IMG/VR virus record: IMGVR_UViG_3300037502_001308
Coordinates: 1 to 30,825 of that record
DNA from: a virus
Reading direction: 5' to 3' (one strand)
DNA: 30,825 nt
Part shown: piece by piece, positions 1-29,500 of the stretch
Position numbering within the stretch: the first letter of the stretch is position 1
Layout of the letters: the number at the start of each line of letters is the position of its first letter
Made by a program: the position numbers and the translations under genes
The notes under the pieces: generated by a model
What the model saw: the letters and a program-made list of their open reading frames with translations, nothing else
The model's database searches: none
Told to the model about the DNA's origin: nothing

Positions 1-905
1 GTTGAAGTTTGTGTTGGCGTATTGGTTGGTGTATTGGTTGGAGTTTGTGTAGGTGTTTGGGTTGAAGTTTGTGTTGGAGTTTGTGTTGGTGTATTGGTTG
101 TTGTTGGAGTGTTAGTTGGGGTTTGTGTCGGTGTGTTAGTTGGCGTTTGGGTTGGTGTTTGTGTCGGTGTTTGTGTCGGTGTATTAGTTGTTGTTGGGGT
201 GTTAGTTGGGGTTTGCGTAGGTGTGTTAGTTGGAGTTTGAGTAGGTGTGTTTGTTTGTGTGGGAGTATTAGTTGGTGTTTGGGTTGGTGTTTGTGTCGGT
301 GTATTGGTAGATGTTGGTGTATTGGTTGCAGTATTTGAAGGTGTGTTGGTTGGTGTATTTGTTTGTGTTGGTGTATTGGTAGGTGTATTGGTAGGTGTCT
401 GTGTAGGTGTTTGCGTAGGTGTTTGTGTAGGTGTATTGGTTGGGGTTGATGTATTTGTAGGCGTTTGTGTGGGTGTGTTGGTTGGTGTATTTGTAGATGT
501 TTTTGTTGGTGTATTAGTTTGTGTTGGGGTGTTAGTTGTTGTTGGTGTGTTTGTAGGTGTTTGTGATGGTGTGTTAGTTGGCGTATTTGTGGGTGTATTT
601 GTTCGTGTTGGTGTGTTTGTAGGTGTTTGTGATGGTGTGTTAGTTGGTGTATTTGTAGGCGTTTGTGTGGGTGTTTGTGTGGGTGTTGGGGTGGGTGTAT
701 TAGTAGGTGTTTGTGTGTTTGTAGGTGTTTGGGTTGGTGTATTAGTTGTAGTATTTGTAGGTGTTTGTGTTGGTGTATTAGTTGTAGTATTTGTAGGTGT
801 TTGTGTTGGAGTGTTGGTTGGTGTTGGTGTATTTGTAGGTGTATTGGTTGGTGTTGGTGTATTTGTAGGTGTATTGGTTGGTGTTGGTGTTGGTGATGGT
901 AATGG
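1..905 (-). repeat. Thr-Pro-Thr-Asn/Gln coding repeat (12-base period)
   Basis: Read on the minus strand, this stretch encodes about 300 residues of a tetrapeptide series TPTN/TPTQ with occasional variants (TSTQ, TPSN, TTTN). The plus strand is nearly all G and T. The units differ at synonymous positions (ACA, ACT, ACC; AAT, AAC), so the array is old or under protein-level selection rather than a fresh slippage product. The repeat keeps frame throughout and continues past the left edge. Such sequences usually make extended, non-globular stalks, and their threonines could carry O-glycans; that last point is speculation. Confidence 0.95.
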
Positions 906-3900
906 AACATAACATCCAACAATAAATTTAAATGTTGTTTCAACATTAGGATATGTTGTAACAACAACTTTAATTAAATTAACATTTTCATCTACAGATA
1001 TATCTGCACTACCAGTTCCACCAGTATATGAATATGGTGTCGTTTCATCAGACGGTACATATACATCAAAAACATCTTCATTAGTAAATCCTGAATAATA
1101 GAATACAAATTTACCTATTGAATAGGTTGGTGTTATTGGTATATAATATGTTAATGGTGTTGCCGAATATTGACCCTCTATCTCAACACCACATTCTTCA
1201 ATATCTATTTCTTCAATACATGAAACCTTAAAACTATATGTTGTTTCTATTTCAGTGCTACTTGTTACCCTAACCTTTACAATATCAACACTACTATCGA
1301 CAAATATATCATATGTACCAGTACCGCCAGTAAAAGAATATGGTGTTGATGAGGCCGTATACGGAACAAATACTTCAAAAATATCTTCAAATGAATGACC
1401 CGTGTATTCAATTGTTATTACACCATTAATATTATTTACATTTCCAATGTTTATATAATAATCTTTTGGCGTTGCTGAGTATTGTCCATAAATTATTTCA
1501 TTACATAATGTTGTTGTTACAGCACTAGGTGTGATTGTTGGTGTTGGTGTTTTTGTTGGTGTTGGTGTATTAGTTAATGTTGGTGTTTGTGTTGGTGTTA
1601 CATCAACAATGCTACAATCAACATTAAAAACCCACGTTGAATTTGTTTCTGTTGTTTTAACAACAACTTTAATTATGTCATATGTTCCATCAATATATAA
1701 ATTACTACTACCCGTTCCACCAACAAATGTTTGTGGTGTTGTTGATGTTGCTGGTGCATAAACTTCAAAAGTATCTGGTGTAGAATACCCCGAATAATTG
1801 AAGGTGATTTCTCCAGGTGTTACACTACTTAATTTGACAAAATATTCTTGTGGTACTGCGGAATATGAACCTTCAATATTTGTGTCACATAGATAAGTTG
1901 ATTTAGGTACAAAGCATGAAACATTAAAAAGATATTGTGACTCTATTGAAGAGTTTGGTGTCACTCTAACTTTAATAATTTTTGTGTTAGTTGTAATTGG
2001 TATTGTTGTTGTTCCATTAACACCATTAAATGAATATATTGTTGATGATGCGGTATATGGTACAAAAATTTCAAATGTACTCGCATTACCAAACCCATTG
2101 TAATTGAACGTTATTTCACCTGGTAATGCGGTATTATTATTAATATTAATAAAATAATCAATAGGTGTTGCAGACCAACTACCAACTATATTGGTATCAC
2201 AATTTCTAGTTGTTATTGGTGTTAATGTTGGTGTTGGTGTGTTGGTTGGAGTTGGTGTCAGTGTTCTTGTAACAGATGGTGTTGGTGTATTAGTAGGTGT
2301 GTTGGTTGGCGTAAGTGTTGGTGTTGGTGTCAACGTTCTTGTAACAGACGGTGTTGGTGTGTTGGTTGGTGTCTGCGTGATTGTTGGTGTTGGTGTTCTT
2401 GTAGGTATTTCTGGTAAGTCTTCGCATGGTGTAGTATAACTTCTGATAAGTGAAGAGATACTTGGAATAACATTACATTTATCGCTATTTGGTAAATAAT
2501 AATACTGCTGAAGTTTCATATCCATAGCAGTAAACTTATCATATGTATGTTGTAATAAAAGTTGATAATTATTATTACCATTAAACATTATTACATCTGA
2601 TAAATTAATATCGTTTTCAATGTTAATATGATAATATATGTTAGCATCACAATAATTTAAATCAACACCTACTACTTCTAACAACTCGCCATTATGTGCT
2701 ACTAAGTAATCACCATTTCTTGTGAATGATATTGTTTCGCCCGTAACATTTAATTCTGGACAACAAGGATTATTTACACTTTGTGTTTGAATAGTGTCTT
2801 CAGCTCGAACTTGTAAATATTCGGGTAATCTATTGGTGAAATAATAGTTTTTATTATTGGTTATACCACCATTAGATTCGTTAACTTGAATATTTGTATA
2901 TGTTCTGAGTCTTGTGGTTGGTAGTAATTCAAACACCTCAACCGAGGATGTTGAAGTAAGACCACTGATAATATTTCTCTTTATTGAACCTAAACAATCT
3001 ATGCCACTAATTGTGACACCAGTATATTGGTATGAAAATGAGTAATCATTTTCAGATTTTGCGGTTACAAAATCTTGGTTTGTAAATGTTGATGCATTTA
3101 AATATATTGCAGATAATATTGTATCCCCCGATACTATATTTTGAATTGTTGTTGGAATTAATGTTCCACCAGTTATATATGATTCAATATCTGCGGATGT
3201 TGTCTCAGCATTAATTGTTGCACCATCAATAAGCAAGACCTTTGTGTCACCTTTGATACCATAGTTGAAAGAAGGTCTATATTGTACAATTGGTTCTATT
3301 GTATAGCCTGTTGTAGATAATGGATCTTCTGGTGTACACACAGATTTTAATTGTAATCCTTGTATTTTAGCTTTAATATCGCAGTTTGCCCCATCGGTGA
3401 ATAACAAATCAATTTCGTCAGTTTCTGTTACGCCCGAAATTAATAATGTACAATTTTCACTCTCCCCATCAATAATGATTGGATTTATTTGTGTGTACCC
3501 ACCCCCAATTGTTGGTAATGATGCGTTATATCCCGAAGAACAATTCGCATGAACATACACTGGCCAATATGGCGATGAACCTACCGCTGGAATTCCAATG
3601 GTTTTACCTGTAAATGTTACATAGATTCCGCCAGTCAATAAACAATTTTCGGTTCCACCACTATAGATATCATTCGAAGCGAATGAAAAATTAGCCTCCA
3701 TCCCACATAATGGACCTTCTTTAGTATATTCTGAAACAAAACTAAAGTCAATATATTCTCTGACTGAACAATCATTTGTGCCATAATATATGGATGTAAA
3801 AATAATCTTTTCACTCCCTGGTGTTGTTTCGTCAAATTGATATTTAATTCTATCGGTTGGATTGTTTATGATGTACTCTATTAAATTTGCAATAGCAGAC

Positions 3901-6530
3901 TTCCATAAAGTTTTAATTTTATCAATATCAGGATTTACATAATCCTTATACTCACATATCAATGGTAATTGGGTATCAGTTGTTCCTGTTGATATTGATG
4001 TGCAACCACCATTGTCTATAAATTCTGAAATATCTTCAGTTAAACCACTAAATAATCTAGCACTATTTGTGGTGCTTGTTGTTCCACTTATAACAACTCT
4101 TGCTGAATCTGTTATCCCTGTGAATGATTCCCCACCATAAATTTCACCATCAATATCTATAATTGGATATAAAATTATAGTTGTTAAATCAATTAATCCA
4201 CGAAGATTAGACTCTTCACCTATTAATGTTTCTAAGTCTTCCTCTATTGCGGATTCAAAACTTGGGTATAAAGATTGTGTAAACGTTTTGACTGAACAAC
4301 CTTTTCTATATGCAAATTTGGACCTACCAAATATTGAGTTTTCGATTAAGTTACCACCAGTCCATAAAGTTGTTGCTGGTATAAATTGCTCAATAAGTTT
4401 TGTCCAATATGGTGTTAAGTTATTTACAAAATCATTTATTGTTGTAATATCATATGGTGTAAAACCCGTACTTGTAATATAATCTTGGTATATATCTTCT
4501 AACGCAAAGTAGTTCTTTTGATATTTTATTAAATGTGAATTCTTTATTTGTGTACTAAAAACGTTATTTAAGTATTGTGCAAACGTGAAACCTGTTTGTG
4601 GTTCAAGAGTGTTGGTTCCAAAACTCAAAGATAGTTCTCTTGACTTTCTGTAAATATCATAATCAATACCTCTTGCTGGAGATATATAAACATTTATATT
4701 TTTTCTATTTAATATCAAGGATGATTCTTCATCGACAACATGTGATTTTTCATTATCAATTAAAGTCTCCAATTCATAACCTGTTTGTAATCCAGGTAAC
4801 ATTCTAAAAACATCAAAATATTCTTCACCATAGGTAAATTCTTTTGATTTGGTTTTTATAATTTTTGTTCTACCTGTCAAAACAGAATTATCTGTATCAG
4901 TGACCATTGTTGACCTATGCAACAACGTCTTTTCATACCAACCAGCACCTTTTTGAAAATAAATGTCTTCGGTTTTTGATGATGCTCTTCTTGGTAAATA
5001 AGAATTTTCTTTAACTGGATAACCCGCTCTTGTAAAAGTAGTGTTACCACTTAAAATAGCATCATATATATCACCTTCAAGGTCTGATGTTTTAGGTACA
5101 GAAGTTACTTTATAGACATATTCATCAAGTTTAATTAGTGGTTCAGGTGCACCTAAAAATTTTAAGAAGAATTCAATTGCTTTTCTTGTGCCTTTTGATT
5201 TGTAGATGTATGATAAGTTTACTATTAAGCGTCTGTAAAATTCATACTCGGCTTCAATCTGTGTTTGTCCATATGGTAAACCATCATAATCACTATTTGG
5301 TCTTGTATATAATAAACTATTAAAATTCTTTTCGTCTAATAAATTTATACTTTCTAAACCAAGAGTATTTGCTAAATTCTTTAATAAAACATCTGGAATG
5401 TTATTGACAGAGTCATAAGAAACATTTCGCATAAATGCTATATTGTCAATATATTTTTTGACTCTATCAAAACTTTGACCATATAATTGAAATACTGCAT
5501 CCGCTTTTTGGTCTTGTGAATCGAATTCGAATAATTGTGGTGAGGCTAAAAATCTAACCATTAAATTAGACTTATAATCATCAACCTCATCACCAATATC
5601 ACTTAATTCAGTTACATATTGTTCATATCTTAATCCCGAAATTTGTGGGTTCCAATTATCTTTAGACAATGGCCAAGTCACTAACTTTGGTGTAAGTTCA
5701 CTTCCACTACTATCCGCATTATCTCTTGGAACAGAAAAGGATGCAGTATATATTGGCGTTGTTTCTCTATTTAATAAAATCTCTTCTAATTCATCAAGGT
5801 TATTAAAAAATTCTTCAACAACACCATTATTTGGTTTTATCAATATATTTTGATTATACGTTGACCCAGTAAATGGTTTACCAGCAATAGTCAACGTTAA
5901 TATATTTTCGTTGTTAGGTTCAACATAATCTACAATATCATATTTTATACCTTCAACTTCTATTACATATTTTTTGTATGAAGAATAAAAATCTCTGATA
6001 GGGTTTTCAATATTTTTTAGTAGACTATTTTGTGTAATTAATTTTATATCAAATGGGTTGTATATCATTGATAACTCAATTTCAAATTCTGTTGTTTTGA
6101 AATTGTTATCATATGATATATTATAAGCAGTATATGACTTGGCTTTGATTGGACTATTGACATCAACCAACATTGCGGCTGGAAATGTCTTAATAATATT
6201 TGTTAATGAAACTAATATTCTACTTTTTAAAGAACCAAATAATGACTTGTTTCCATTATTTTTAGATGTGTTGAATCTTACCTTGTCAGTCCTTCTTGGT
6301 GTGGATTGTGTGCTGACAACAACTTCTTCTTTTAAGTCATCTAATGTTAAAAAATCTGAAAATGCGGAAGTAACAAATTCTTTACTATCCTTTTCAGGAA
6401 TTACAACATCTAATGCAAAATTTGTATTTGTTAGTTGACTTGTTCCATCCGTAATCTGATAACCAACTAAACTATCATTAAATGTATCTGCCCCACTTGC
6501 CGCTTGACTAGGTACTTTTCTTTTTGCCAT
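1..6530 (-). CDS. Giant modular tail-tip/fibre protein (3' end outside window)
   Basis: The frame is open from the ATG at 6530 to base 1, giving at least 2176 residues with no stop, so the C-terminus is missing. The ATG overlaps the previous stop by one base (TAATG), which supports translational coupling. Domains in order: an N-terminal baseplate-like part, which near residues 430-465 has a [15 protein letters not shown] segment resembling the P2 gpI tail-protein family; a cysteine-rich middle, about 840-1400; a short Thr-Pro linker, about 1408-1440; two Cys-bracketed modules at 1444-1539 and 1548-1639; a Thr-Pro linker; two more modules at 1676-1771 and 1780-1873; then a Thr-Pro-Thr-Asn/Gln stalk from about 1877 to the window edge. 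The layout of base, beta-like modules and extended stalk suggests a baseplate-anchored host-contact fibre. The structural role is fairly sure from context; the receptor role is inference. Confidence 0.85.
912..2204 (-). repeat. Four Cys-bracketed ~95-residue modules arranged as two pairs
   Basis: Within the giant protein, four diverged protein repeats each begin with Cys followed by a G-x-(W/Y)-SA-(T/V)-P pattern and end with a hydrophobic-x-Cys pattern. The Cys pairs are residues 1444/1539, 1548/1639, 1676/1771 and 1780/1873. Shared inner motifs include an aromatic-rich FE(V/I)-x-(V/A)P stretch, a GGTG turn (GVNG in the first module) and an IIKV-x-VT strand. Modules 1 and 2 are 9 residues apart, and so are 3 and 4, while 2 and 3 are separated by a Thr-Pro linker. 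The arrangement therefore looks like duplication of a two-module unit. The pattern suggests a beta-sandwich; I cannot name the family. Confidence 0.8.
1530..1606 (-). repeat. Short Thr-Pro linker between module pairs
   Basis: This piece encodes about 25 residues of [16 protein letters not shown] character between modules 2 and 3 of the giant protein. It is the same kind of sequence as the long terminal stalk, which shows that Thr-Pro stretches are used as spacers between folded units. Confidence 0.8.
2215..2415 (-). repeat. Thr-Pro linker containing a 72-base direct repeat
   Basis: A Thr-Pro-rich linker precedes the first Cys-bracketed module. It contains a direct repeat of 72 bases (24 codons): the block starting at 2257 recurs from 2329 with few changes. 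Each copy encodes [12 protein letters not shown] flanked by NTPTPT. The period is an exact multiple of three, so loss or gain of a copy would keep the frame. Confidence 0.8.
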
Positions 6531-10990: not shown

Positions 10991-13900
10991 TTATACGTTT
11001 GTAAATCCATTTTTAGGTCCGAAATATTTTATTAGTTTATCAAATGCTGTTTTACCAGGTGTTATTCCAAAATAAAATAAAAATGGTGTTGATAGCACTT
11101 GTTTGCTGCCGCTATAGTTTTTGGTTGTTTCAAATAAAAACATTTCATATTGTTGATTTACAAATTTTTGTGATTGTTTTATCCATGTTTTATTTACAAC
11201 AACATATATATCACCACTTATTGGTGTTTTTCTGTAATCCGTTCCAACGTATGTTAGAACATGTAACCACAAATCACCCTCAACAAATGACGTTGCACCA
11301 TTAGTTGTAGTATTTGGTGCAACATCGCTTATGACTTCAAATCTTTCAATTGGACTATTTTGATAATCACCTTGTATATTATAAGTTGGATGTGTTATTG
11401 TCATTGGCTTGAGTAGATACTCTTCCTCACCATCAGCCATTAGGTAATTTGTTGTTGTGGCATTATGAGACGATATTGAAAAAATTCTTTGCAATTTCAT
11501 TGTTGCAATATTTTGTCTATCCCATTTTTGTTGGTCAGATAAATTACCATAATTACCAAACCCTTCGTTACCTTTATCCCATAAATAAAATGGTACCTTT
11601 TGTGAAAAATCTCCGAGTCTATAATTTAAACAACCTCTAATGAATGCACCATTTACGTCTAATTTGAAATCTATAGGTAACGGACTATACAGACCATTCT
11701 TTTTAAAATATGAACCATATGTTGGGTCATCAGGATCCATTATTTCATTATTGTACATGAAATAATGTGGACTATCCAAATCAAACTCTTCAATGCCCGC
11801 TTCACAATTTATTGACATCAATTGAATTATATCACCATCTAAAGTTTGTATATTAGACCCATATTGCCTACCACTGAAAAAGTCTTGAACATCCACTTTA
11901 GCATCTGTAATATCTAATCTATAATTTAAGGCATATTCAATGACATTTGCTGGATCTTGATATGACGTTACTGAAATATCTCTAACAACTGAGCATGTTG
12001 GGTCAATACTTGGGTCTGTACATATTTCATATAAAAATTCATCCCTAACACCTAAATCATAAAACGTTGTTGGGTGAAGAATTTGTTTTTGTAGCACATT
12101 GTTAATTTTGAAATACTGCTGCCCAATAAATTGACCAACACCATTTTGATACTTGTATGGTGTACTTCTATAGTAAAAATTTTCATCTAATACATTAAAA
12201 AATATTAATTCTCTCGGAAATTTTGAACCGCCTTGGTTTAAATCATAATTTTGAATATTATCCCATTTAATTCTTCTATCAAATTTGAAGAAATATAAAA
12301 CACCTGAAAGCCAATTGTCAATAAAAGAATAATTAACAACACCACCACAAAATGATAAAAGAACTTTTTTCCTTCTATACCATTCTCTAATTGCTTGAAG
12401 ATTTTTACTATTTCCTCTTATTACAGGTATAATTATAAAAACACCATCTCTAAATTCTGATAAACCTGATTTAGTTCTTCTATCGTATGTTACATCACCA
12501 AGATCATTACCATATGACATTTTATATGGTAATCTTGATGCACCTGAATCTCCGATTATTGTAGCAACTAATGTTTTATTTAATGGTTTTGTTAATGATT
12601 CTTGAAAATTACCATTATAAGTTGGTGGATTTAATGGTTCTGTTGGTTCACCATATGTAGTTGTTGAATTCCATAAATACGTTCTTATTATTGACTCATC
12701 AAATACAGAATCATATTTTGAACAACCTTGCTCTATTGTTATTGCATTATTTGTTGTGCTTGGTGTATTAATAAAAAATCCTCTTTCATATATTCTTAAT
12801 ACGGCATATGTATATTGATCATCTATCGGTGTTGAACTAGAATAATCCATACCAGTTAAATTAAACCATTTTTGATATGTAAATTCTATATATTTTCCCG
12901 TACCTAAACCAGCTTGCGTCATTTTACCAAAACCATAATCAACATTGAATTTAATATCGGTATCATTAATATTGTTATCATTAAAAAAACAAACAAAATT
13001 ACTAAATTTAGCACTATTTGCTATTGAGTCTGAATATATTTGAGCATAATATTTTGAAGTATTAGGGTCGTTAGGTACATTTATAGAATATGTATGTAAA
13101 TTATCTAAATCAGAGTATTGCATAGTAGATACAGATTGACAATCTGAATCATTTGATTTAGATGATTCCATCGGAAATAATGATGGTATAAGTGTTGTAC
13201 CAGCATTAGTACTACTACTAAAATTATTTATACTATTAACATCTAAAATATATAATAAAACAAGATTTTCAGAACCAATACTAAAATTATCTACCTTTAA
13301 TTTTACCTCAGAAACTCTACAATATGTGTTTTCATAAGTTATATCTGTTGATATGGTTTCATCATCTTGCGTACATTCATCACAATCAGGATATATTGTA
13401 AGTGGTAACGTTTGAGTAAATTTCGCCTGCATATGATATGATAAATTTTCAAATCTTCTTGCAATACCTTTAAACAAAAAACCCGCCAACCAACTATCAT
13501 AAATAAACATTGCAACACCATAAAATATTGAACCTATTATTTCAGCTACTTTAACTAATACTATGGTAATTAAAAATTGAAAAAACAATAATATTTGTGA
13601 TAATATCAATCCAAAATTTCTTCTATTTCTAAAAGCAAAATTTGTTGGGAAATAATTAACCTTTGATGCACAATCTTCTTCTTCTTTTGGTCTGATTTGT
13701 TTTACACCCAAAAAAGCATCTCTTCTCGCTGTTTCATAATGTGTCCCTTGGAAGGAAGATACTGTATATACTTTAGCATATGTAAATTTATAGAAATAAT
13801 CTTCAGGTATACCATTGTTATTTGTACCCAACATCAAATCTTTTTTATGATTTTTAACATCACTTGTATAATTTGTTGTGTCAAAAGTAACTGAAGTTAA

Positions 13901-15178
13901 TGGTGGAGGTACATTTATATAATCTTCAAATACATCAGAGAATTGATAGGTTGCAAGCATCCCCATGCTATACTCATACCTTGTATTTAAACCAGTCACA
14001 ATATCAGGATTAAACTCTCTAATATTTGGTACCAAGTATTTTGCGGTCGTCTTTTTTCTATCTTCAAATTGTAAACCAAACCTAAATCTTGCAATTGTTG
14101 TTGTTGGTATTCCCCTATTAGTATCGTTTGTTATCTCTTGTTCACCAAATTCATTTGTATAAACATATTCCATGTTCATTGGTAGAACGGCCATTGCCGC
14201 ACCATCTTCATCGATGACTTCGGCAATATTATAATATTCTAATTCTGGATATTGTGTTTGACCATCTGAACCAAGTACTTTTCTTCCAGTATATCTAACA
14301 CATTCGATTGTTCCACTTGTTGTTTGAAGATTACATTTGTAACCAGATTTTGCTCTAATTTTACCATTTCTTTTTATTGAATCACTATTGTCATCAGTAA
14401 AACTTGAAAATAATATTAAAGAAATTGGCTCAATTTTAATACCTCTTTCTGACAAATCAAAATCTGTTCTTGTAATCCCGATTTCACATAACTCTTGATT
14501 TCCCCAAAATGGATATACTTCAATTGTTTTATCAAAACTTATTATTTGTGGTAATCCATCAACGTCTGTGCTTGATTTGAAATTATAAAATCTATCAAAG
14601 TTTGATTCTCCAACACCTTTAATGATGAAGTCATATGGTCTCAGTGAAAAACAACCAATGTCAGATAAGTCAATATCAACATGAATTCTTTGTGTACCTA
14701 ATGGCACGCCCCATATCATAAAATCACCAGATTCGTTTGTTTTAACGGTGTAATTGTAATATTTCTCATACACCTCCAACACCTCCTCTCTTGAAAGAAT
14801 TTCAGATTGGCTTGGAAATGTTCCAGTAGGAACATGACCACCATGTTGTTTTTTTGCTGGTAATAAATTATATCTATATCCATCATCGTTCTTGTCACTT
14901 AATTCAATATATGGATATAAAGCAGATATCACAGGATCATCAGCATCATTTGTGTCTTGTGGCACAAAAATGGATACTTTTGCGTTAGGTATTCCTAATC
15001 CATTGTTTGCGGTAATTCTACCAACAACAACACCATAATCAGAACACAATGATGAGTATGCGTCTTTTTGTGTAAACTTTAATGAAAGTATTTCTAATAA
15101 ATCAAAATCTTGTTTTAACTCAACAAGAATCTTTTGATCCTTACCAATATTTGTTGAAATTCTATGTTTTTGTACCAT
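10991..15178 (-). CDS. Large baseplate protein at the gp7 position, with carboxypeptidase-regulatory-like domain and hydrophobic core segment
   Basis: The product has 1395 residues from the ATG at 15178; a GTG directly before it is a weaker alternative start. By order, directly after gp6, it occupies the place of T4 gp7 (1032 residues), but I see no clear gp7 signature. Counted from the GTG, residues 48-75 and 144-172 form a carboxypeptidase-D regulatory-like beta-sandwich (GRITANNGLGIPNAKVSIF, then ESGDF and a hydrophobic strand). It is split by an insert of about 65 residues rich in charged and Gly residues. Around residues 520-575 lies a long, very hydrophobic stretch with two or three potential membrane helices, followed by a CDEC motif. 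The C-terminal half is Tyr/Asn-rich and beta-like. The structural role is likely; the hydrophobic segment is unexplained. Confidence 0.8.
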   Translation of the reverse strand: MVQKHRISTNIGKDQKILVELKQDFDLLEILSLKFTQKDAYSSLCSDYGVVVGRITANNGLGIPNAKVSIFVPQDTNDADDPVISALYPYIELSDKNDDGYRYNLLPAKKQHGGHVPTGTFPSQSEILSREEVLEVYEKYYNYTVKTNESGDFMIWGVPLGTQRIHVDIDLSDIGCFSLRPYDFIIKGVGESNFDRFYNFKSSTDVDGLPQIISFDKTIEVYPFWGNQELCEIGITRTDFDLSERGIKIEPISLILFSSFTDDNSDSIKRNGKIRAKSGYKCNLQTTSGTIECVRYTGRKVLGSDGQTQYPELEYYNIAEVIDEDGAAMAVLPMNMEYVYTNEFGEQEITNDTNRGIPTTTIARFRFGLQFEDRKKTTAKYLVPNIREFNPDIVTGLNTRYEYSMGMLATYQFSDVFEDYINVPPPLTSVTFDTTNYTSDVKNHKKDLMLGTNNNGIPEDYFYKFTYAKVYTVSSFQGTHYETARRDAFLGVKQIRPKEEEDCASKVNYFPTNFAFRNRRNFGLILSQILLFFQFLITIVLVKVAEIIGSIFYGVAMFIYDSWLAGFLFKGIARRFENLSYHMQAKFTQTLPLTIYPDCDECTQDDETISTDITYENTYCRVSEVKLKVDNFSIGSENLVLLYILDVNSINNFSSSTNAGTTLIPSLFPMESSKSNDSDCQSVSTMQYSDLDNLHTYSINVPNDPNTSKYYAQIYSDSIANSAKFSNFVCFFNDNNINDTDIKFNVDYGFGKMTQAGLGTGKYIEFTYQKWFNLTGMDYSSSTPIDDQYTYAVLRIYERGFFINTPSTTNNAITIEQGCSKYDSVFDESIIRTYLWNSTTTYGEPTEPLNPPTYNGNFQESLTKPLNKTLVATIIGDSGASRLPYKMSYGNDLGDVTYDRRTKSGLSEFRDGVFIIIPVIRGNSKNLQAIREWYRRKKVLLSFCGGVVNYSFIDNWLSGVLYFFKFDRRIKWDNIQNYDLNQGGSKFPRELIFFNVLDENFYYRSTPYKYQNGVGQFIGQQYFKINNVLQKQILHPTTFYDLGVRDEFLYEICTDPSIDPTCSVVRDISVTSYQDPANVIEYALNYRLDITDAKVDVQDFFSGRQYGSNIQTLDGDIIQLMSINCEAGIEEFDLDSPHYFMYNNEIMDPDDPTYGSYFKKNGLYSPLPIDFKLDVNGAFIRGCLNYRLGDFSQKVPFYLWDKGNEGFGNYGNLSDQQKWDRQNIATMKLQRIFSISSHNATTTNYLMADGEEEYLLKPMTITHPTYNIQGDYQNSPIERFEVISDVAPNTTTNGATSFVEGDLWLHVLTYVGTDYRKTPISGDIYVVVNKTWIKQSQKFVNQQYEMFLFETTKNYSGSKQVLSTPFLFYFGITPGKTAFDKLIKYFGPKNGFTNV

Positions 15179-15181
15179 CAC

Positions 15182-15193
15182 TATAATAAATAG
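15182..15193 (-). promoter_or_regulatory. Candidate late promoter motif (CTATTTATTATA)
   Basis: The minus strand reads CTATTTATTATA immediately before the GTGATG start of the 1395-residue gene. It shares TATTTATTAT with the sequences before gp25 and the 101-residue gene. The distance from the core to the ATG is about 7 bases, so if it were a -10 box the transcript would be nearly leaderless. Alternatively it may act in translation initiation. Confidence 0.35.
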
Positions 15194-15213
15194 AAAAAAT
15201 GAGATTTTCTATT
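15189..15213 (-). terminator. Weak A/T-rich hairpin after gp6-like gene
   Basis: AATAGAAAA at 15189-15197 can pair with TTTTCTATT at 15205-15213 around a 7-base loop, in the 51-base gap between the gp6-like gene and the 1395-residue gene. Only one pair is G-C, so the stem is weak. It could be a partial terminator or chance in AT-rich DNA. Confidence 0.25.
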
Positions 15214-15232
15214 ATTATAATAAAAAAAGATA

Positions 15233-17065
15233 TTAAAATGAAGTTGTTCCTAATGTTTTAACTCTAAATTTAATATCTTTATTTGGGAATCTTATCTGAT
15301 AAATCTGATTAGATTTCATATATATCGTCATATCAGATTGTGCAATTTCTTTGGTTGTACTATCTTTATATGCTTGAGTTACTTCAGAACTCGAATATTC
15401 ACCTCCGATTAAATTAAAAACACGAATATCTATTACGTTTACTACACCATTGATATTACCTAAAAGTCTATATAAGTCACCCACAAATAATGGGTCTCCC
15501 ATTTTTCTTCTATTGATTGAAAAATAGTCGGTAACACCATCAATAGCTGTTCTGAGTAATTCAGTTTGGTTAATATTTTTATCAATCGCCATATCAATCT
15601 CTAATTTGAAATCTATAACTTCGCCACTTTCAATGTCTAAATAATCATTTAACATTCTATATTGTGACAGATATTTGATGATATTATTTTTTAATGTGTT
15701 TGAAACAATATTAGTCAAATTGCCCCTATCGTCATAAGATAATATTTTAACTCTTACTTTATTATCTTCTTCCATAACATTGACCTTTGCGGGTGCACCA
15801 AATACTGATGGCATATTTTCTATCATTGATTTATAATCATTCAATGTTACCGCTCTATTTTGTGCTGCAAAATTATATGCCACCATGTTTCTAATTTCTT
15901 CTATTGTCGGTTGATCTGCACCACCAATTGCTGGCGTGACGTTTGTTACACGTAACGATTGTGCAACTTGTGTATTAATAGTACTATTTGGACCTAACAC
16001 TATGAAATCAACATTATCAACACTTGTAATTACATTAACACCCAAATTTGAATCTCTACCTCCACCAATTCTATATTTAACAAATAATGTGGTATTTGAT
16101 TTTGGGGTCATGCCCAATGACATATTATTTAAATAACTTGATAATGAAACTTGCATATTACCATTTACAAAATTATCTAAATTATCCATAGGGTCAACAA
16201 CGCCCGAACCAAAAGTTAATGAAAAGAAACCTTCGGGTGTATATTCTGTAATAAATTTATTCGTAACCTTTAAATAAGTTCCAGATGTAAAATTATCTCT
16301 ATCTGATACAATTGTTGGATCTGGTATGAAAACACTATCTTCAATAAGTGATTTTACTTCGTACCATCTATTAGTTGCCGTTTCAAATTCAGAAGATAAT
16401 GGATTCGCACCAAAATTAGTGCCTTCTTTATGAATAACTGATGTTATTCCCAAAACATTTTGTTCAGGTAAAAACAATTTTAAAAATGGTTTTTGATCTG
16501 CTTGTGTTATAACTCTTCTATAGATTCTTGTTGTACCATTAACGACAGCATCTCTTTTAGTTATTGTGTATGATATTAATCTATTGTTAGCATCAAAATT
16601 TGGTATTTTTAACCTATTAGGTTCGCCCTTGCTATTAAATGGGTTTGAAAAATCTATGTCCTCAATTGTTTCAAATACTTGTCCTCCACCTGAAACTTGA
16701 GCACCACTCTTTAAAACACCCAAATATCTTTCATCTTCTTTGTCTCCTCTTACGGGTACATTAATTGAGAAATCACATAATGCTACAGATGGTCTATTCC
16801 CTGGAATCTTAAGACCATATGTTTTGGCAATATGAAACAAGGATTGTCTTTGTTGTGCAAAATCCAACATTGTTTCTTGCCAAACCCTATCTATATGAAA
16901 ATGTAAGTTATCGGTGACAGCAGCGTTCAAGTCTAATAAAACAGAAAAAATCGATGCATCATTAGTATTAGTTACTAAATCTGGATAATATTGTTTGGTT
17001 AAATTGACTAGTTCTTCTCTTAATCCTGCGAAGTCCCTAGTTGCATATGATATCTTTTTACTCAT
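15233..17065 (-). CDS. Baseplate wedge protein, gp6/J-like
   Basis: The 610-residue product resembles the baseplate J / T4 gp6 family, whose members form the inner ring of the contractile-tail baseplate and the wedge vertices. It opens with a typical N-terminal region (TRDFAGLREELVNLTKQYYP, then NDASIFSVLLDLNAAVTDN, then a Gln/Arg-rich helix). It also has the family's DYKSMIENMPSVFGAPAKVNV segment near residue 420, followed by a region for the J-type C-terminal domain. T4 gp6 is 660 residues, so the length fits. It follows the gp25-like gene by one base, the gene pairing conserved in contractile tails and type VI secretion systems. The upstream leader has no Shine-Dalgarno sequence. Confidence 0.9.
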   Translation of the reverse strand: MSKKISYATRDFAGLREELVNLTKQYYPDLVTNTNDASIFSVLLDLNAAVTDNLHFHIDRVWQETMLDFAQQRQSLFHIAKTYGLKIPGNRPSVALCDFSINVPVRGDKEDERYLGVLKSGAQVSGGGQVFETIEDIDFSNPFNSKGEPNRLKIPNFDANNRLISYTITKRDAVVNGTTRIYRRVITQADQKPFLKLFLPEQNVLGITSVIHKEGTNFGANPLSSEFETATNRWYEVKSLIEDSVFIPDPTIVSDRDNFTSGTYLKVTNKFITEYTPEGFFSLTFGSGVVDPMDNLDNFVNGNMQVSLSSYLNNMSLGMTPKSNTTLFVKYRIGGGRDSNLGVNVITSVDNVDFIVLGPNSTINTQVAQSLRVTNVTPAIGGADQPTIEEIRNMVAYNFAAQNRAVTLNDYKSMIENMPSVFGAPAKVNVMEEDNKVRVKILSYDDRGNLTNIVSNTLKNNIIKYLSQYRMLNDYLDIESGEVIDFKLEIDMAIDKNINQTELLRTAIDGVTDYFSINRRKMGDPLFVGDLYRLLGNINGVVNVIDIRVFNLIGGEYSSSEVTQAYKDSTTKEIAQSDMTIYMKSNQIYQIRFPNKDIKFRVKTLGTTSF

Positions 17066-17066
17066 T

Positions 17067-17519
17067 TTATATGTTTATAATTATAAAATCTGAAGACGAA
17101 AACGCTCCATTATTAACTGTATAATCTATTTTAACTTTTGCGGTATATGGTTTGGTAGAATTATCAGAAACCCTAAAAAGTCTCTCATCTTCTAATTCAT
17201 TCAAACTCATTTCATTATCAGGATCCTCTTCGGCTGATGTGACAATTATTGAATTAATATCAAGATTAGGTATATATTTTTTAACACTTTCCCTAATTTC
17301 TTCTTCGATTAGATTCCACGTAACAAAATCATTTTGGTCAAAAATGAATTCATAGATTCTTGTTCCAAAATCTGGCAAATAATATCTTGACCCTCTTCTT
17401 GTTAAAATTAGATGAATTAGATTAGCACGTACTTCTCTTTCTGGTGTTTCAGTCATACTTAAAAAATCACCTCTTTGACTATCTCTAAATGGAAAATCTA
17501 TACCATATTTTACTGCCAT
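17067..17519 (-). CDS. GPW/gp25-family baseplate protein
   Basis: The 150-residue product starts MAVKYGIDFPF. It matches the gp25/GPW lysozyme-like baseplate family, which clamps wedge proteins around the hub and helps start sheath assembly. Signatures are the N-terminal DFPF strand, the ETPEREVRANLIHLILTRRG helix-turn segment, then YLPDFGTRIYEFIFDQND, the family's core motif, and a C-terminal beta strand pair. An upstream ATG at 17576 would add 19 residues of hydrophobic sequence encoded by the terminator and leader. I reject it because the 17519 ATG directly follows the conserved TATTTATTAT motif and begins the conserved domain. The gene heads the baseplate operon and is followed at once by the gp6-like gene. 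Confidence 0.92.
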   Translation of the reverse strand: MAVKYGIDFPFRDSQRGDFLSMTETPEREVRANLIHLILTRRGSRYYLPDFGTRIYEFIFDQNDFVTWNLIEEEIRESVKKYIPNLDINSIIVTSAEEDPDNEMSLNELEDERLFRVSDNSTKPYTAKVKIDYTVNNGAFSSSDFIIINI

Positions 17520-17532
17520 AATAATAAATATA
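17520..17532 (-). promoter_or_regulatory. Candidate late promoter motif before gp25 (TATATTTATTAT)
   Basis: Minus-strand TATATTTATTATT lies directly before the gp25 ATG and just downstream of a terminator, where a new transcript would have to start. The 14 bases ending in the ATG, TATTTATTATTATG, are identical to those before the 101-residue gene at 18053. Confidence 0.45.
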
Positions 17533-17554
17533 AAGAATGATGAAATGTGAATAA

Positions 17555-17583
17555 ACAAAAAACTCGGATTATTCATCCGAGTC
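17555..17583 (-). terminator. Rho-independent terminator overlapping the end of the mini-protein gene
   Basis: An 8-base-pair stem (17562-17569 with 17575-17582; ATCCGAGT and its complement) surrounds a 5-base loop, and on the minus strand is followed by a T run. The stem and loop contain the last codons and the stop codon of the 60-residue gene, so coding and termination share the same bases. Confidence 0.85.
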
Positions 17584-18118: not shown

Positions 18119-20371
18119 TTAAATGCGAACTATATCGCACGAACCACCAGAACACGCGACCGCACCAAATTCACCGATGTCCTTGTATTGTGGTTTGTCA
18201 AGAATTTCACCGAAGTTAACTTCTTTGAACTGACGAGTAACGGTTTCCCATTTGTGGAAGAGATGTACATCTTTCAAACAATATACCATCTTCCTCATGT
18301 CATTCTTAAAGTAGTTCTTTGCAAACTTCTTGGCTCTATCTAACCAATACTTCCTCAACAATACTTGTTCTCTTGTTCCTGTAACTGGAAGGTTTTCAAG
18401 AAGAGTGTCACATGCTGACCAAAGGTTGTTGTCGAAGTAATGAAGGCCATCTACAACCAATCCTGAGGCTAATACGGCACCTTTACCATACTCTTCCACA
18501 AGTTCCTCCAAGTTAAGTACTGAGGTGAATGGTGCTTGGTTAAAATCCTTGTCACCATAGTCGGACATAAATGATACCGCAGTGAATTCGTCTTTATTAT
18601 CCCAAATGTAATCAACAATTGCATCCTTGTCATCAATTATGACGGTGCAAGAAGTGTTATGGTTGATTGGATTATAAACACACTTTTCAGGATTTGTACC
18701 AGCATTAACCCAATTCTGTTGAACCAACTTGATAAGTTCAAGATGTTTGATACCTTTCATGTCTTTTTTGAAAAGTCCTTTCTTTGGATTCTCAACTGGA
18801 ACAAATACAACATAATCGCTTTTTGTTGTTGACCATACACTATCTTCCAAAAGGAATGGCATATTGTCTGTCAACCATTTTGCGGTATTTGATTCCTTGT
18901 TAAGTTGCATGATTCTGAAGTATTTTTCAGAATGTTCAGGATGAATACCTGATGCTGTACCCAATACGACTGATGCATTTCCTGAAGGTTTAACACAAGT
19001 TGTTCTTGCCGCTTGATTAATTCCAATTACTTCTGCAAGTTCTTTGTTTGTTCTTTTTACAACTTCAGCACCTTCTTTCAAGAGTTCAGCATTGAACAAC
19101 ATAGGATTATTCATCCATCCTGTGATGCTAACACCAAGCAGTGCTTCTCTTGCGAAAATCTTTTCACTTGTCCCACCAAGATATGGGAAGTTGTTGTACC
19201 CTGCTTGTAATGTACCAAGAATAGTGGCATCTTTACATGCTTTAAAAAACTTTTCTTTTGTTGTACATTTTTCAGCATTGATTTCAGATAAGTTACATCC
19301 TTGGATACCAAACTTGTCTTTATTCATTCTTGTATAATGTTCAACGTCCTCATAATCAATTTTTGAGAAATCAATATTATCAAGAATGGGTATCTTCAAA
19401 ATTTCAAAACATGGATTAAACATATCAAACCAACTATTTGCAAATACGAATCCAATATCGTTTGCACCATCGTTAAGTTTTACAAGATAATCGAATTGTT
19501 CTTTTGTTACTTTACCTCTCAACAAAAGAACTGAGTTGTTAGACCTTGCTCTTTGTGGGTTCTCTACCCTCCAATTACCCGTCTTTGCATGAATCATTTC
19601 ATCGTCATTTGGGTCAACAATCATATTCAATGCAGACCTTCTAACACCACCAGATAATACCGCATCAGATGCATGACAAATAATGTCGAATGCCAAAATG
19701 GGTCTGATTTTATTACCTTCTTTATCCAACCATTTTTCAATCAATTGCTCAATCTTTTCCAATGATTGTTTAAGTCCATCGGGACCTGGGGCTTTGAATC
19801 CGCCACTGATGAATGTTCCCTTCTCTCTGATTAATGAATAATCGAACTTGACCTCATAACCAGCATATTCTGGAAATGGTTGGTTGTCCGCAAAATATGA
19901 TGATAAAAGAACACCAAGAGAATCTGCCCAACCCTCAATAGTATCAGGAATAACAAACGTTTTTGTACCTAAAACTCTTTTTTGGATACGGCTTATGTTG
20001 TTTACAAATGGAATCAATAAACCACCACCAACACCACAGCCAGATAGACCAAGATAAAAAATTTCTTGAAATACTCTGTTTCTCATGATGTGCGTACTTG
20101 TACAATTGTACATTCTTGTGTTATGACGCATAATTTCATCATGTCTGAATTGAAGATTCCTTTGAGATGCGAGAACAACTTGGTCTTTCATACTTTCAAA
20201 AGCAGAAGACAAATATTCTTCAATGTCCACATTAGAATATTTTTTTCTATGTCCGTTTATGATATCAGCACATGCTTCTTCCCAATTTTCATACCTACCG
20301 ATTTCTTCTCTCCATTTAAAGTAATCCGAATACAATTTTAAGTCGCTAAGAAATTTCTTACCTTTTTGCAT
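18119..20371 (-). CDS. nrdJ: Adenosylcobalamin-dependent (class II) ribonucleotide reductase
   Basis: The 750-residue enzyme reduces ribonucleotides to deoxyribonucleotides with a thiyl radical generated from coenzyme B12, so it needs no NrdB subunit or oxygen. Visible active-site elements are GCGVGGG with Cys112 (first redox Cys), NPCFE with Asn319, Cys321 and Glu323 (radical Cys and partners), GCNLSEI with Cys359 (second redox Cys), and a C-terminal CSGGSC with Cys740 and Cys745. The last pair has the five-residue spacing of the re-reducing cysteines of the Lactobacillus leichmannii enzyme (731/736). Length is close to that 739-residue monomer. It lies 18 bases after the helicase gene, ends the DNA metabolism block, and is visibly less AT-rich than the structural genes. 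No candidate phage thioredoxin is adjacent. Confidence 0.93.
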   Translation of the reverse strand: MQKGKKFLSDLKLYSDYFKWREEIGRYENWEEACADIINGHRKKYSNVDIEEYLSSAFESMKDQVVLASQRNLQFRHDEIMRHNTRMYNCTSTHIMRNRVFQEIFYLGLSGCGVGGGLLIPFVNNISRIQKRVLGTKTFVIPDTIEGWADSLGVLLSSYFADNQPFPEYAGYEVKFDYSLIREKGTFISGGFKAPGPDGLKQSLEKIEQLIEKWLDKEGNKIRPILAFDIICHASDAVLSGGVRRSALNMIVDPNDDEMIHAKTGNWRVENPQRARSNNSVLLLRGKVTKEQFDYLVKLNDGANDIGFVFANSWFDMFNPCFEILKIPILDNIDFSKIDYEDVEHYTRMNKDKFGIQGCNLSEINAEKCTTKEKFFKACKDATILGTLQAGYNNFPYLGGTSEKIFAREALLGVSITGWMNNPMLFNAELLKEGAEVVKRTNKELAEVIGINQAARTTCVKPSGNASVVLGTASGIHPEHSEKYFRIMQLNKESNTAKWLTDNMPFLLEDSVWSTTKSDYVVFVPVENPKKGLFKKDMKGIKHLELIKLVQQNWVNAGTNPEKCVYNPINHNTSCTVIIDDKDAIVDYIWDNKDEFTAVSFMSDYGDKDFNQAPFTSVLNLEELVEEYGKGAVLASGLVVDGLHYFDNNLWSACDTLLENLPVTGTREQVLLRKYWLDRAKKFAKNYFKNDMRKMVYCLKDVHLFHKWETVTRQFKEVNFGEILDKPQYKDIGEFGAVACSGGSCDIVRI

Positions 20372-26510: not shown

Positions 26511-29500
26511 TTATTCAAGTCTAAAATAAACAATTCCACCATTTTCTAATTTCAATTTTTTCATCAGTGATGTTGACAAACCGATACCAAAATTATTAAC
26601 AACACCATTATCTATTGGTCCGTTTACTTTTCTATTCGAATCACTTCCAGATATTGTTGAATTTACAATTGTTTTAATTTTAATTTCAGGATTAACAAAT
26701 GTCGTCTTGGCTGAAAATATTTTTTCATGTGTTATCTCATTATTTTCACCAGGTACAATAAAGTTTAAACTATAAAAATCATTACTTGTTGTGGTTCCAC
26801 TAATTTCATTCCATTTCAATATTTTTTGTGTCTTTAATTTACTTACAACAAACATCGTTTTATCGTTTGGATCAATAGGAAATTGTGAACTACCATAATT
26901 GTATACTCTTGCTCTGAACCATCTTTTTTCTTCCTCACCTGGGAATGTATACTTGATTAATTGTATTGTTTCAACATTTTTATAACCATTATATGGTACA
27001 CCGAATTCAGAATAACCCGACTCTTCAACTTTTATTTTTTCAAAATCTTCACCAATCGCTTCTTGTCCAATGTTAACTCTATATGTTTTACCATCCTTTT
27101 TATTGAGAATTGTGGATGTTAAATTTAATTGACCCGTAGAAGATAGTGTTTGTTTTTTTATTAAATCCGCTCTCATTTTATCAAATAATACCCTATAACT
27201 TGAAATGAAGGAATCTCTTGGGTCGGGTAATGATGTTTGTGGAATTCTAGTGCCCTTAAATGTTGTTGTGAAGTTATTGCCTCTTATTTGATGGGATACT
27301 TCTGTTATCCAATACGAACCTTTGAACATAGGAATATTTTTCAAATAGAAAAACATTGTTGGTTGTATCATAGCATTTCCCATACATGTTACATCACAAG
27401 TATACGATGCTTGTCTGTAGTAATCAAATAAACTAATATCAACATTATATGCACCCGCACCAGATTCAGATCTTGCTAAGTTTTCTAAAACTGCAAATGA
27501 TTCTGTTGTATTTCTTAATGAGGTTTGGTCTAATGTTACACCTTTGAAAATTCCTTGATTTTGGTCGCCAAAACTTACTTCAAAGGCCACTGCTCTGTTT
27601 GATTTTGACAAATCAAGATTACCAAAAGATTCTAATGTCGTTATTAAAATTGGATTTTTACTTGGGTCTAAAAAATTAAAACTATCGTCCTTATATCTAT
27701 AATTGTTATTTGGAATATCCAAATGTTTAGATGTTTGTCCAACTAATTGTAATATAATTTTTGGCGATGTGTCTTGATAATCAACATCTAAAAAGGTACC
27801 AAATAAATCAGATGCTATTTTTTTAGATGGTGTTATTTTATTTTTTGTTTTTACTTCATTACCATAAAAATTTATATACGATGGTAATGGTCGCATATCA
27901 ATACCACTATCTCTTATTAAAATAGATATAACACTATAAAGATTTGTTTTGTCTAAATCTTGATTATTTAATTCGATTAATCTAGTTAAATTCAAAAATA
28001 GTTTATCTCCAATATCTTTGTTAGCCTTATCCAAAAAAAAGAACTCCTCCAACAATAATCTTTGTCCTATAGAATTTCCTCCAATCCACTTATCATTAAA
28101 AGATTTGAAAGTATTATATAATTCTAACTTCAATTTTTCGTTCTCGTATCCTGAAATAAACTTTCTTGTTGACCTATTTTCAATTATTGGTTGTAATTGT
28201 GCAAACTTGGGTGTTAAAAAATTTAAGAAATCTCGTCTTCTTGTTATGGAACCTGTTGTTTTTCTACTATTTTTTGGGTATTCAAGAATTTGTGATTTTA
28301 TGTAATTTTGAAAAGATGTTGTATCATCAGGTTGTCCACTTTCTACATAACCAGCATATATTTGTATCAGTGGTCTGAATTGTAATATATTTGTTTCGGT
28401 TAATCCAATATCATTTACTTCGAAAAAATTTTGATAATGTAAGTCAATATCTTCACCTAAATATAATTTTATTAATTGTTTATTTTCGTCTGTAAGTTGT
28501 GAACTGAAATATCTTTGTACCACATAATTTTCAACATTACTCATTCCAACAAATCCATACCAATTATAATTGTCAATCTCTTTTGGGTTTCCAATTGAGA
28601 ACTTCAACATATTTTTGGTTAGAATATTGTTTGTAATTTCTTGTAATTTTTGAGTTTGTCTTTTTTTAATTTCAACAATAACATTTTGTGGTGTTAAGGA
28701 ATCATCAGTAGATTCTTTTTTTACTGAAACAATTTCATTTAATAATGTTTGAAATTTGCTATAATTAATATTTGGAAATCTTTGACTGACTTCTGTTTTT
28801 GATAATTTTTCCGATGCAAATTCTAAAAATATGTTTTCAAAATCATCAAGTATCTTTGGACTGAATGTCGCTATTAAATCGATAACTTTTTTATAATCTT
28901 TATCTACAGCATAAATGTTATTGTCTGAAGGATTATCAGATGTTGTTTTAAAATATTGATCACTATTAGGAAATGTTCTATTTTCAAATGCATCATTAAT
29001 ATAATAGTCTTCCCATAAAATACTGAAATAATTCTGTGTTGCACTACTGAATGGTTCAAAATTAAGTGCAACTGATGTAGTTGTTAAATTAGTAACTAAT
29101 AATTTGTTTATATTTTTATTTGCACCATCACATGGTAAAATTGTTAGTCTTAAATCAGTAACGTCATATTTGCTATTATCAACATATGATGTCCAATAAT
29201 TTAAATTGTTAGATTGTGGTTTTTTAATCGATACAATTGATTTTGTTTCTGTTCTTGCTGAATATGATGTATTTCCAGATAAAACATCATAATGATTATA
29301 ATCATTGACTACTTGATGATATATTGCATCGTAATAAGGGTGTATACCAACATCTTTACCTTCAGAATATGTTATCGTATCTCCGCTTGATGTGAACCCC
29401 GTGAAATTCTCGTCTGTTTCATCATCATTAAAAAATAAAGAACCATTTATTCTTGTAGACTTATATGATGTGTTTAAAAACCCATCTAAAATATCAACTC

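What the first reader, a model, noticed from the sequence alone, without database searches (positions are those of the whole stretch)
13440..13640. Long hydrophobic, membrane-like segment in the middle of a cytoplasmically assembled baseplate protein
Around residues 520-575 of the 1395-residue protein lie two or three consecutive strongly hydrophobic helices, followed by a CDEC motif. No signal peptide exists and flanks are ordinary soluble virion sequence. A buried segment that inserts into the host membrane on contraction would be a notable mechanism. A misplaced acquisition is another explanation.
Basis: partly seen in the sequence, partly recalled or inferred. Interest (0 to 1): 0.65.

Follow-up and report, generated by a model that had tools for sequence, protein, structure and literature searches.

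The report
Conserved hydrophobic hairpin in phage baseplate
A large, uncharacterised baseplate protein of an abundant group of uncultured, contractile-tailed phages carries, in every member examined, a very greasy helical hairpin bracketed by three invariant cysteines; it most likely plugs into a neighbouring part of the baseplate, and a role in entering the host membrane is possible but unproven.

Summary
The 1395-residue ORF (10994-15178, minus strand) has one membrane-grade hydrophobic stretch, residues ~521-570 (hydropathy 2.58; 0 of 2000 shuffles reach its 50-residue mean). It is no accident or misplaced acquisition: in 101 non-redundant relatives the protein's hydropathy maximum lies there in 100 and exceeds 1.6 in 97, although sequence at the site is poorly conserved. 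AlphaFold2 predicts a 40-residue helix (522-561) and a second helix (567-587), an antiparallel hairpin between two low-confidence linkers, bracketed by invariant C503 and C599xxC602. Gene order gp25-gp6-X is constant, and the five large relatives searched encode a contractile sheath. X is not gp7: it has no detectable similarity to it, and a P2-gpI/gp7-like protein lies downstream. No homologue was found in 50,697 phage records or 84,980 prokaryote genomes, against at least 580 viral contigs; one uncharacterised protein, from Myoviridae sp. ctPuP5, appears in BFVD. The helix has a family-wide polar stripe, and 65 of 101 relatives carry charges even in their most hydrophobic 19 residues. This favours a hairpin buried in an inter-subunit helical bundle over a lipid-embedded one. 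Membrane insertion at infection is not excluded: X has the only membrane-grade segment in the tail modules read, tape-measure candidates included.

The parts
10991..15178 (-). Protein X, 1395 aa, uncharacterised baseplate-cassette protein (stop codon included)
   Evidence: >=580 related viral contigs; no Pfam hit over cut-off and no PHROG
13496..13615 (-). Helix 1 of the hydrophobic hairpin, residues 522-561 (40 residues), with a polar stripe (528, 534, 538, 546, 550, 553, 557, 561)
   Evidence: AlphaFold2 pLDDT 73-94, 60-90; hydropathy; family profile
13418..13480 (-). Helix 2 of the hairpin, residues 567-587, amphipathic
   Evidence: (pLDDT 76-84)
13670..13672 (-). Invariant Cys503 (E/D-D-C motif) in the linker before the hairpin
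   Evidence: 101 of 101 non-redundant relatives
13373..13384 (-). Invariant C599-x-x-C602 (YP-C-x-x-C motif) after the hairpin
   Evidence: 99 of 99
12722..12724 (-). Cys819, conserved wherever the column is occupied; candidate fourth ligand (inference)
   Evidence: 29 of 29
13616..13741 (-). Linker, residues 480-521, low confidence (pLDDT about 50-55)
12773..13324 (-). Beta-rich domain, residues 619-802 (pLDDT 93-98), in the part that varies most in length among relatives
14429..15043 (-). N-terminal Ig-like (CnaB/transthyretin/CarboxypepD_reg-like) domain, residues 46-250, the most conserved part
   Evidence: VIA-align Z up to 7.2; Pfam CarboxypepD_reg E 0.032, below cut-off; conservation
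15179..15217 (-). Conserved non-coding element abutting the X start codon (AGAAAA-N7-TTTCTATTTATTATA)
   Evidence: no covariation support for the small stem
15233..17065 (-). gp6 / Baseplate_J-type wedge protein, directly upstream of X in 124 loci
17067..17519 (-). gp25-type sheath initiator (start most likely the ATG at 17519)
3..6530 (-). Probable gp7 / P2-gpI-type wedge protein (residues 432-471, at 5118-5237, match Tail_P2_I weakly), runs off the window

Best explanation
Protein X is a wedge-associated baseplate protein specific to a large group of uncultured contractile-tailed phages. Its hydrophobic segment is a long antiparallel helical hairpin ('finger') joined by flexible linkers to two soluble beta-rich parts; the two feet of the finger are probably clasped by the invariant cysteines C503, C599 and C602 (metal or disulphide; a fourth ligand may be C819). 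In the assembled baseplate the finger most likely docks into an inter-subunit helical bundle, made with gp6, another wedge protein or neighbouring copies of X. The hydrophobic faces are buried there and the narrow polar stripe faces water or polar partners. It would thus play a role like the helix-turn-helix 'core bundle' of other contractile systems: holding the wedge together and passing on the movement that triggers contraction. Shown here: hydropathy, conservation, hairpin prediction, invariant cysteines, gene order. Inferred: docking partner, clasp, presence in the virion, function.
For: Hairpin predicted in two runs with different alignments. Polar stripe along the whole 40-residue helix: position 534 is E/Q/D in 94% and 546 N/E/Q in 98% of weighted sequences, with polar or charged residues common at 528, 538, 550, 553, 557, 561. 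65 of 101 relatives carry 1-3 charged residues in their best 19-residue window and all carry 2-7 in the 40-residue helix. Hydrophobic moment significant and opposed to the variable face; variable positions are the more polar ones, corr -0.45. The helix is twice the length of one membrane pass. Hydropathy grades down to 1.49-1.59 in some clades without loss of the module. Gene order gp25-gp6-X constant, gp6 directly upstream in 124 loci. Precedent: T4 gp7, a wedge protein with solved structures, also has a stretch of KD 2.07, and GenBank annotates a 'predicted integral membrane domain' at its C-terminus. Core bundles are made of helix-turn-helix motifs of wedge proteins (PMC10457771; PMC10996793).
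Against: In the window's own clade the helix is extremely hydrophobic (octanol -15.8; 36 of 101 relatives have no charged residue in the best 19 residues), more than any T4 wedge or hub protein examined. The variability vector is significant only in the second half of helix 1, so the first 24 residues remain compatible with lipid. No partner or complex was modelled, and no coordinates were available to measure packing or cysteine distances. Fold matches of the hairpin are generic.
Confidence: 0.55

Rival explanations
1. Stowed membrane finger: in the virion the hairpins are shielded inside the baseplate, and on contraction (probably six copies, one per wedge) they insert into the outer or inner membrane, anchoring the baseplate or lining an opening with their polar stripe.
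For: Membrane-grade hydropathy in 97 of 101 relatives; the only such segment among the tail-module ORFs of two relatives, and no flanking ORF of 305 reaches 2.0; the tape-measure candidate of relative L134 has none (KD max 0.88), whereas T4 gp29 has 2.2; a hairpin on flexible linkers; membrane-spanning helices are predicted in other tail proteins, e.g. the diffocin tape measure (PMC10996793).
Against: Polar stripe and charges inside the helix in many relatives; helix 40 residues long; the basic cluster before the helix (517, 519, 521) is absent in one clade, so no consistent positive-inside pattern; variable positions are polar rather than hydrophobic. The tape-measure assignment is by position and composition only (no PHROG).
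Confidence: 0.22
2. Assembly anchor: during replication X sits in the host membrane through the hairpin and nucleates baseplate assembly there, as Cis13 anchors the thylakoid contractile system.
For: Direct precedent for a membrane helix in a baseplate-bound component that positions a contractile machine (Cis13, PMC8894136); hydropathy.
Against: Phage tails must leave the cell, so the helix would have to be pulled out of the membrane again; same polar-stripe arguments; no sequence or fold link to Cis12/Cis13 was tested.
Confidence: 0.1
3. Self-oligomer: the hairpins of three or six X copies form a central hydrophobic helical plug or ring near the hub, independent of gp6.
For: Long helix with a hydrophobic majority face and a narrow, nearly always polar stripe, as in oligomeric bundles. 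By analogy, the AlgoCIS plug Alg6 is a trimer with a hydrophobic core (PMC8894135).
Confidence: 0.1
4. Misplaced acquisition or sequence accident of this one contig.
For: None beyond the contrast with its soluble flanks.
Against: Present at the same place in 101 of 101 non-redundant relatives with invariant flanking cysteines and constant gene order; synonymous changes outnumber non-synonymous ones within it (15 against 11 in 68 codons versus the 91%-identical L001).
Confidence: 0.01

Closest known systems
T4 gp7 (baseplate wedge protein; structures 5HX2, 5IV5, 5IV7)
   Same: Large wedge protein encoded directly after gp6; one membrane-grade hydrophobic stretch (886-904, KD 2.07); GenBank annotates a predicted integral membrane domain at its C-terminus
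   Different: No detectable similarity to X (hhalign probability 0.1); none of the gp7 Pfam domains in X; the phage encodes another, gp7/P2-gpI-like protein downstream
Core-bundle helix-turn-helix of contractile systems (XM1 gp16/gp17, diffocin triplex, AlgoCIS Alg11/12)
   Same: Helical hairpin of a wedge-cassette protein; proposed inter-subunit packing
   Different: There the hairpin is N-terminal and 48-68 residues in all (XM1, PMC10457771); here it is internal, with a 40-residue, strongly hydrophobic first helix and a cysteine bracket
Thylakoid-anchored contractile system, Cis12/Cis13 (PMC8894136)
   Same: A baseplate-bound component with a membrane-grade helix
   Different: Cis13 is a tail-fibre-like trimer with a C-terminal helix, experimentally membrane-bound; X has an internal hairpin and is untested
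A0A8S5LA66, uncharacterised protein of Myoviridae sp. ctPuP5 (BFVD)
   Same: Homologue: 33% identity over 567 alignment columns, Foldseek E 5e-35
   Different: Uncharacterised; its hairpin region could not be inspected here

Membership tests
T4 gp7 family | Sequence or profile similarity to gp7 | tested here: not met
   hhalign of A1 with T4 gp7: probability 0.1, E 0.56; Pfam finds none of Gp7_helical, Gp7_5th, Gp7_6th in X, while T4 gp7 shows all three
T4 gp7 family | Gene directly after gp6 | tested here: met
   124 loci with gp6 directly upstream; T4 order 6-7
T4 gp7 family | No other gp7-type protein in the phage | tested here: inconclusive
   ORF 3-6530 aligns with the L132 homologue (hhalign probability 94) and weakly with Tail_P2_I (E 0.017, below cut-off); no direct profile match to T4 gp7
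Core-bundle helix-turn-helix (gp6/gp7, Tri1/Tri2) | Helical hairpin | tested here: met
   AlphaFold2 helices 522-561 and 567-587
Core-bundle helix-turn-helix (gp6/gp7, Tri1/Tri2) | N-terminal position followed by a trifurcation unit | tested here: not met
   The hairpin is internal (residue 522 of 1395), preceded by an Ig-like and further beta-rich parts
Core-bundle helix-turn-helix (gp6/gp7, Tri1/Tri2) | Packs with two gp6 copies | not testable with these tools
   No complex prediction available
Transmembrane segment | Hydropathy of at least 1.6 over 19 residues | tested here: met
   2.58 in the window protein; 97 of 101 relatives
Transmembrane segment | Few or no charged residues in the span | tested here: inconclusive
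   0 charged in 36 of 101 (window clade among them), 1 in 19, 2-3 in 46
Transmembrane segment | Variable face is the hydrophobic, lipid-facing one | tested here: inconclusive
   Variable positions are more polar (corr -0.45), but the vector is significant only for 542-561 (p 0.034) and not for 522-545 (p 0.7)
Transmembrane segment | Membrane association in an experiment | not testable with these tools
   -
Baseplate/tail structural protein | Constant place among baseplate genes of contractile phages | tested here: met
   gp25-gp6-X order; Phage_sheath_1 over cut-off in 5 of 5 large relatives
Baseplate/tail structural protein | Found in purified virions | not testable with these tools
   No isolate with a homologue in the 50,697 phage records
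CarboxypepD_reg / CnaB-like Ig domain (residues 46-250) | Profile match over curated cut-off or clear fold match | tested here: inconclusive
   Pfam E 0.032, 15 bits against cut-off 32.3; best VIA Z 7.2, rmsd 4.0, 103 aligned
Cysteine (metal or disulphide) clasp | Invariant cysteines at both feet of the hairpin | tested here: met
   C503 101/101, C599 and C602 99/99
Cysteine (metal or disulphide) clasp | Cysteines close in space, metal bound | not testable with these tools
   No model coordinates; feet have low pLDDT

The most novel reading that the evidence does not exclude
The hairpin is a stowed membrane-insertion device: a ring of hydrophobic fingers, clasped at the base by cysteines, that baseplates of this large phage group push into the host membrane on contraction. 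It would take over a membrane role that in other phages is assigned to the tape-measure protein.
Probability: 0.2. Interest if true: 0.75.

Novelty: new variant of a known kind. Interest (0 to 1): 0.42.

Why it matters
How contractile phages deal with the host's membranes after the sheath fires is still poorly known. A greasy, strictly conserved hairpin in a baseplate-cassette protein of an abundant but uncultured phage group is a concrete, testable candidate, either as a wedge bundle built unlike T4's or as a membrane device. It also flags a whole protein family (at least 580 viral contigs, none in the phage or prokaryote genome collections searched) with no known function.

Tried and rejected
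Homology to T4 gp6, gp7, gp8, gp9, gp10, gp11, gp53 by profile: none. Homology to proteins next to gp6 in the nearest cultured relatives (Flavobacterium phage immuto, Microcystis phage Mel-JY01) and in the uncultured LR756508: none at E below 0.05. Solved-structure sequence search with the family profile: no hit at E up to 1. Foldseek on PDB with both models: no hit below E 0.001. VIA-align lists only generic antiparallel hairpins for 522-587 (best Z 8.0) and Ig-like domains for 46-250, both in the range that means little. Phage records and bacterial genomes: no homologue. Local hydrophobic 'N-terminus' of gp25 (KD 2.16): rejected as coding; the start is the ATG at 17519 and the upstream stretch is a conserved non-coding element. 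Stem-loop before X: conserved, but no covariation. A papers search on T4 gp7 as a membrane protein gave nothing decisive.

Full report
The observation. The finding lies in an ORF on the minus strand, 10991-15181; the sensible start is the ATG at 15178, giving 1395 residues. Only one stretch reaches membrane-grade hydropathy: 19-residue windows starting at 521-541, maximum 2.58 at 524-542, octanol sum -15.8; the best window elsewhere is 1.15. Its 50-residue mean (1.73) was not reached in 2000 shuffles. A second, weaker stretch is 551-569. No other ORF of at least 250 residues in the flanks of the first fetched relatives (305 ORFs) reaches 2.0. The CDEC motif is C599-C602.

Relatives. There was no match in 50,697 GenBank phage records (tblastn) or in one genome for each of 84,980 prokaryote species. 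A structure search in BFVD found one homologue, an uncharacterised protein of Myoviridae sp. ctPuP5, 33% identical over 567 columns. In 101 non-redundant relatives the hydropathy maximum lies in this segment in 100; it is at least 1.6 in 97 and at least 1.49 in all. Residue identity at the site is only about 0.2-0.3, against 0.45-0.8 in most of the N-terminal 500 residues. So the hydrophobic character is kept while the letters are not. C503, C599 and C602 are invariant, C819 in all 29 sequences that have the column. Comparison with L001 (91% identical) shows more synonymous than non-synonymous changes in the segment, though it evolves faster than the rest. An accident or a recent acquisition is ruled out.

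Anatomy. AlphaFold2 on residues 1-1200 with 33 sequences (mean pLDDT 68) and on 430-830 with 74 sequences (mean pLDDT 79) agree on a 40-residue helix, 522-561, and a second helix, about 567-587. Before and after the hairpin the confidence drops to about 50 (480-520 and 590-615); the three invariant cysteines sit in or near these feet. A beta-rich domain, 619-802, follows with pLDDT 93-98; it lies in the part that varies most in length in the family. Residues 46-250 resemble CnaB/transthyretin-type Ig domains (Pfam CarboxypepD_reg below cut-off). Structure searches gave only generic matches for the hairpin.

Membrane or bundle? The helix carries a polar stripe: position 534 is E/Q/D in 94% of weighted sequences, 546 N/E/Q in 98%, 528 D/Q/E in 70%, and 538, 550, 553, 557, 561 are mostly polar. 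Most of these positions fall on one side of a helix (100 degrees per residue); the hydrophobic vector over 522-561 is significant (p 0.008) and points about 135 degrees from the variability vector. Variable positions are the more polar ones (corr -0.45). In membrane helices one expects the variable side to be hydrophobic (established knowledge). The test is not clean: the variability vector alone is significant only for 542-561. In 46 of 101 relatives even the best 19-residue window holds two or three charged residues; in 36, among them the window's own clade, it holds none. The first 24 residues of the helix in this clade would be called transmembrane by a plain hydropathy rule. I therefore favour a bundle but keep the membrane reading alive.

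Neighbourhood. Order is gp25 (17067-17519), gp6 (15233-17065), X, then ORFs of 589, 273, 311 and 306 residues and ORF 3-6530; the same order appears wherever the contigs are long enough, and gp6 is directly upstream in 124 loci. Five of five large relatives carry a tail-sheath gene. X occupies the place of T4 gp7 but is not its relative by profile. ORF 3-6530 aligns with the corresponding large protein of Microcystis phage Mel-JY01 (hhalign probability 94), and its residues 432-471 match Tail_P2_I weakly (E 0.017), so a gp7/P2-gpI-type protein is probably present besides X. In the nearest cultured relatives by gp6 (27.9% Flavobacterium phage immuto, 26.4% Microcystis phage Mel-JY01) no X homologue was found in the stretches fetched around gp6, and tblastn found none in the collection that holds these records.

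Tail modules of relatives L134 and L135 (sheath to hub) contain no ORF with a window of 1.6 or more; the tape-measure candidate of L134 (642 residues, by position and composition only; no PHROG) peaks at 0.88, whereas T4 gp29 reaches 2.2 and T4 gp7 2.07. So X carries the only membrane-grade segment found in the parts of the tail module read here. That is the main argument for the novel reading. T4 gp7 is the main argument for caution: GenBank annotates a membrane domain in it, yet it is a wedge protein with solved baseplate structures. I could not check from coordinates how its hydrophobic stretch is buried.

Mechanism. The hairpin most likely docks into an inter-subunit bundle, as helix-turn-helix motifs of gp6/gp7-type proteins do in XM1, diffocin and AlgoCIS (PMC10457771, PMC10996793, PMC8894135), pinned at its feet by cysteines. 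That is inference; what is shown is the conserved, predicted hairpin and its polar stripe. Known ways for such machines to hold a membrane include Cis13 of the thylakoid system, a baseplate-bound trimer with a membrane helix shown by deletion to anchor it (PMC8894136), and predicted membrane helices of tape measures (PMC10996793).

Verdict. Real, strongly conserved and unexplained in detail; membrane insertion unproven and, on balance, less likely than a buried protein-protein hairpin.

Noticed in passing
window 17520-17580 and 15179-15217 (minus strand): Conserved non-coding elements directly before the gp25 start (ACCATTTT-N~10-TTATATTTATT-GATATG in many relatives) and before the X start (AGAAAA-N7-TTTCTATTTATTATAAG); both place a TATTTATT a few bases before ATG. 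Candidate late promoter or translation signal; no covariation for a stem before X.
   Followed up: partly
window 3-6530 (minus strand): A protein of over 2176 residues combining a weak Tail_P2_I-like region with a very long threonine/proline-rich repeat tail ([10 protein letters not shown]...); the repeat probably causes the GC skew of +0.86 at 1-1000.
   Followed up: partly
X family: viral contigs against the phage and prokaryote genome collections: At least 580 viral contigs encode X, but no match in 50,697 phage records or 84,980 prokaryote genomes: an abundant phage group essentially missing from the reference collections, on contigs up to 335 kb (L263).
   Followed up: partly
window 18119-20371: Ribonucleotide reductase gene (PHROG 367; weak match to the B12-dependent RNR insertion domain) close to the baseplate cassette.
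   Followed up: no
L062 (G003, 251,358-base record): X and the hub-like gene are broken into many pieces with stops in several frames; probably sequencing errors rather than real decay.
   Followed up: no
X residues 603-815 across the family: The part after the CxxC varies strongly in length and sequence, from mostly missing to expanded, between two conserved halves; possibly an exchangeable display domain.
   Followed up: no
window 26511-30824: Large protein (over 1417 aa) without a close database match, conserved at 41-47% in four relatives (open frames of 1935-1952 aa there); its C-terminal part reads like a hub protein.
   Followed up: no
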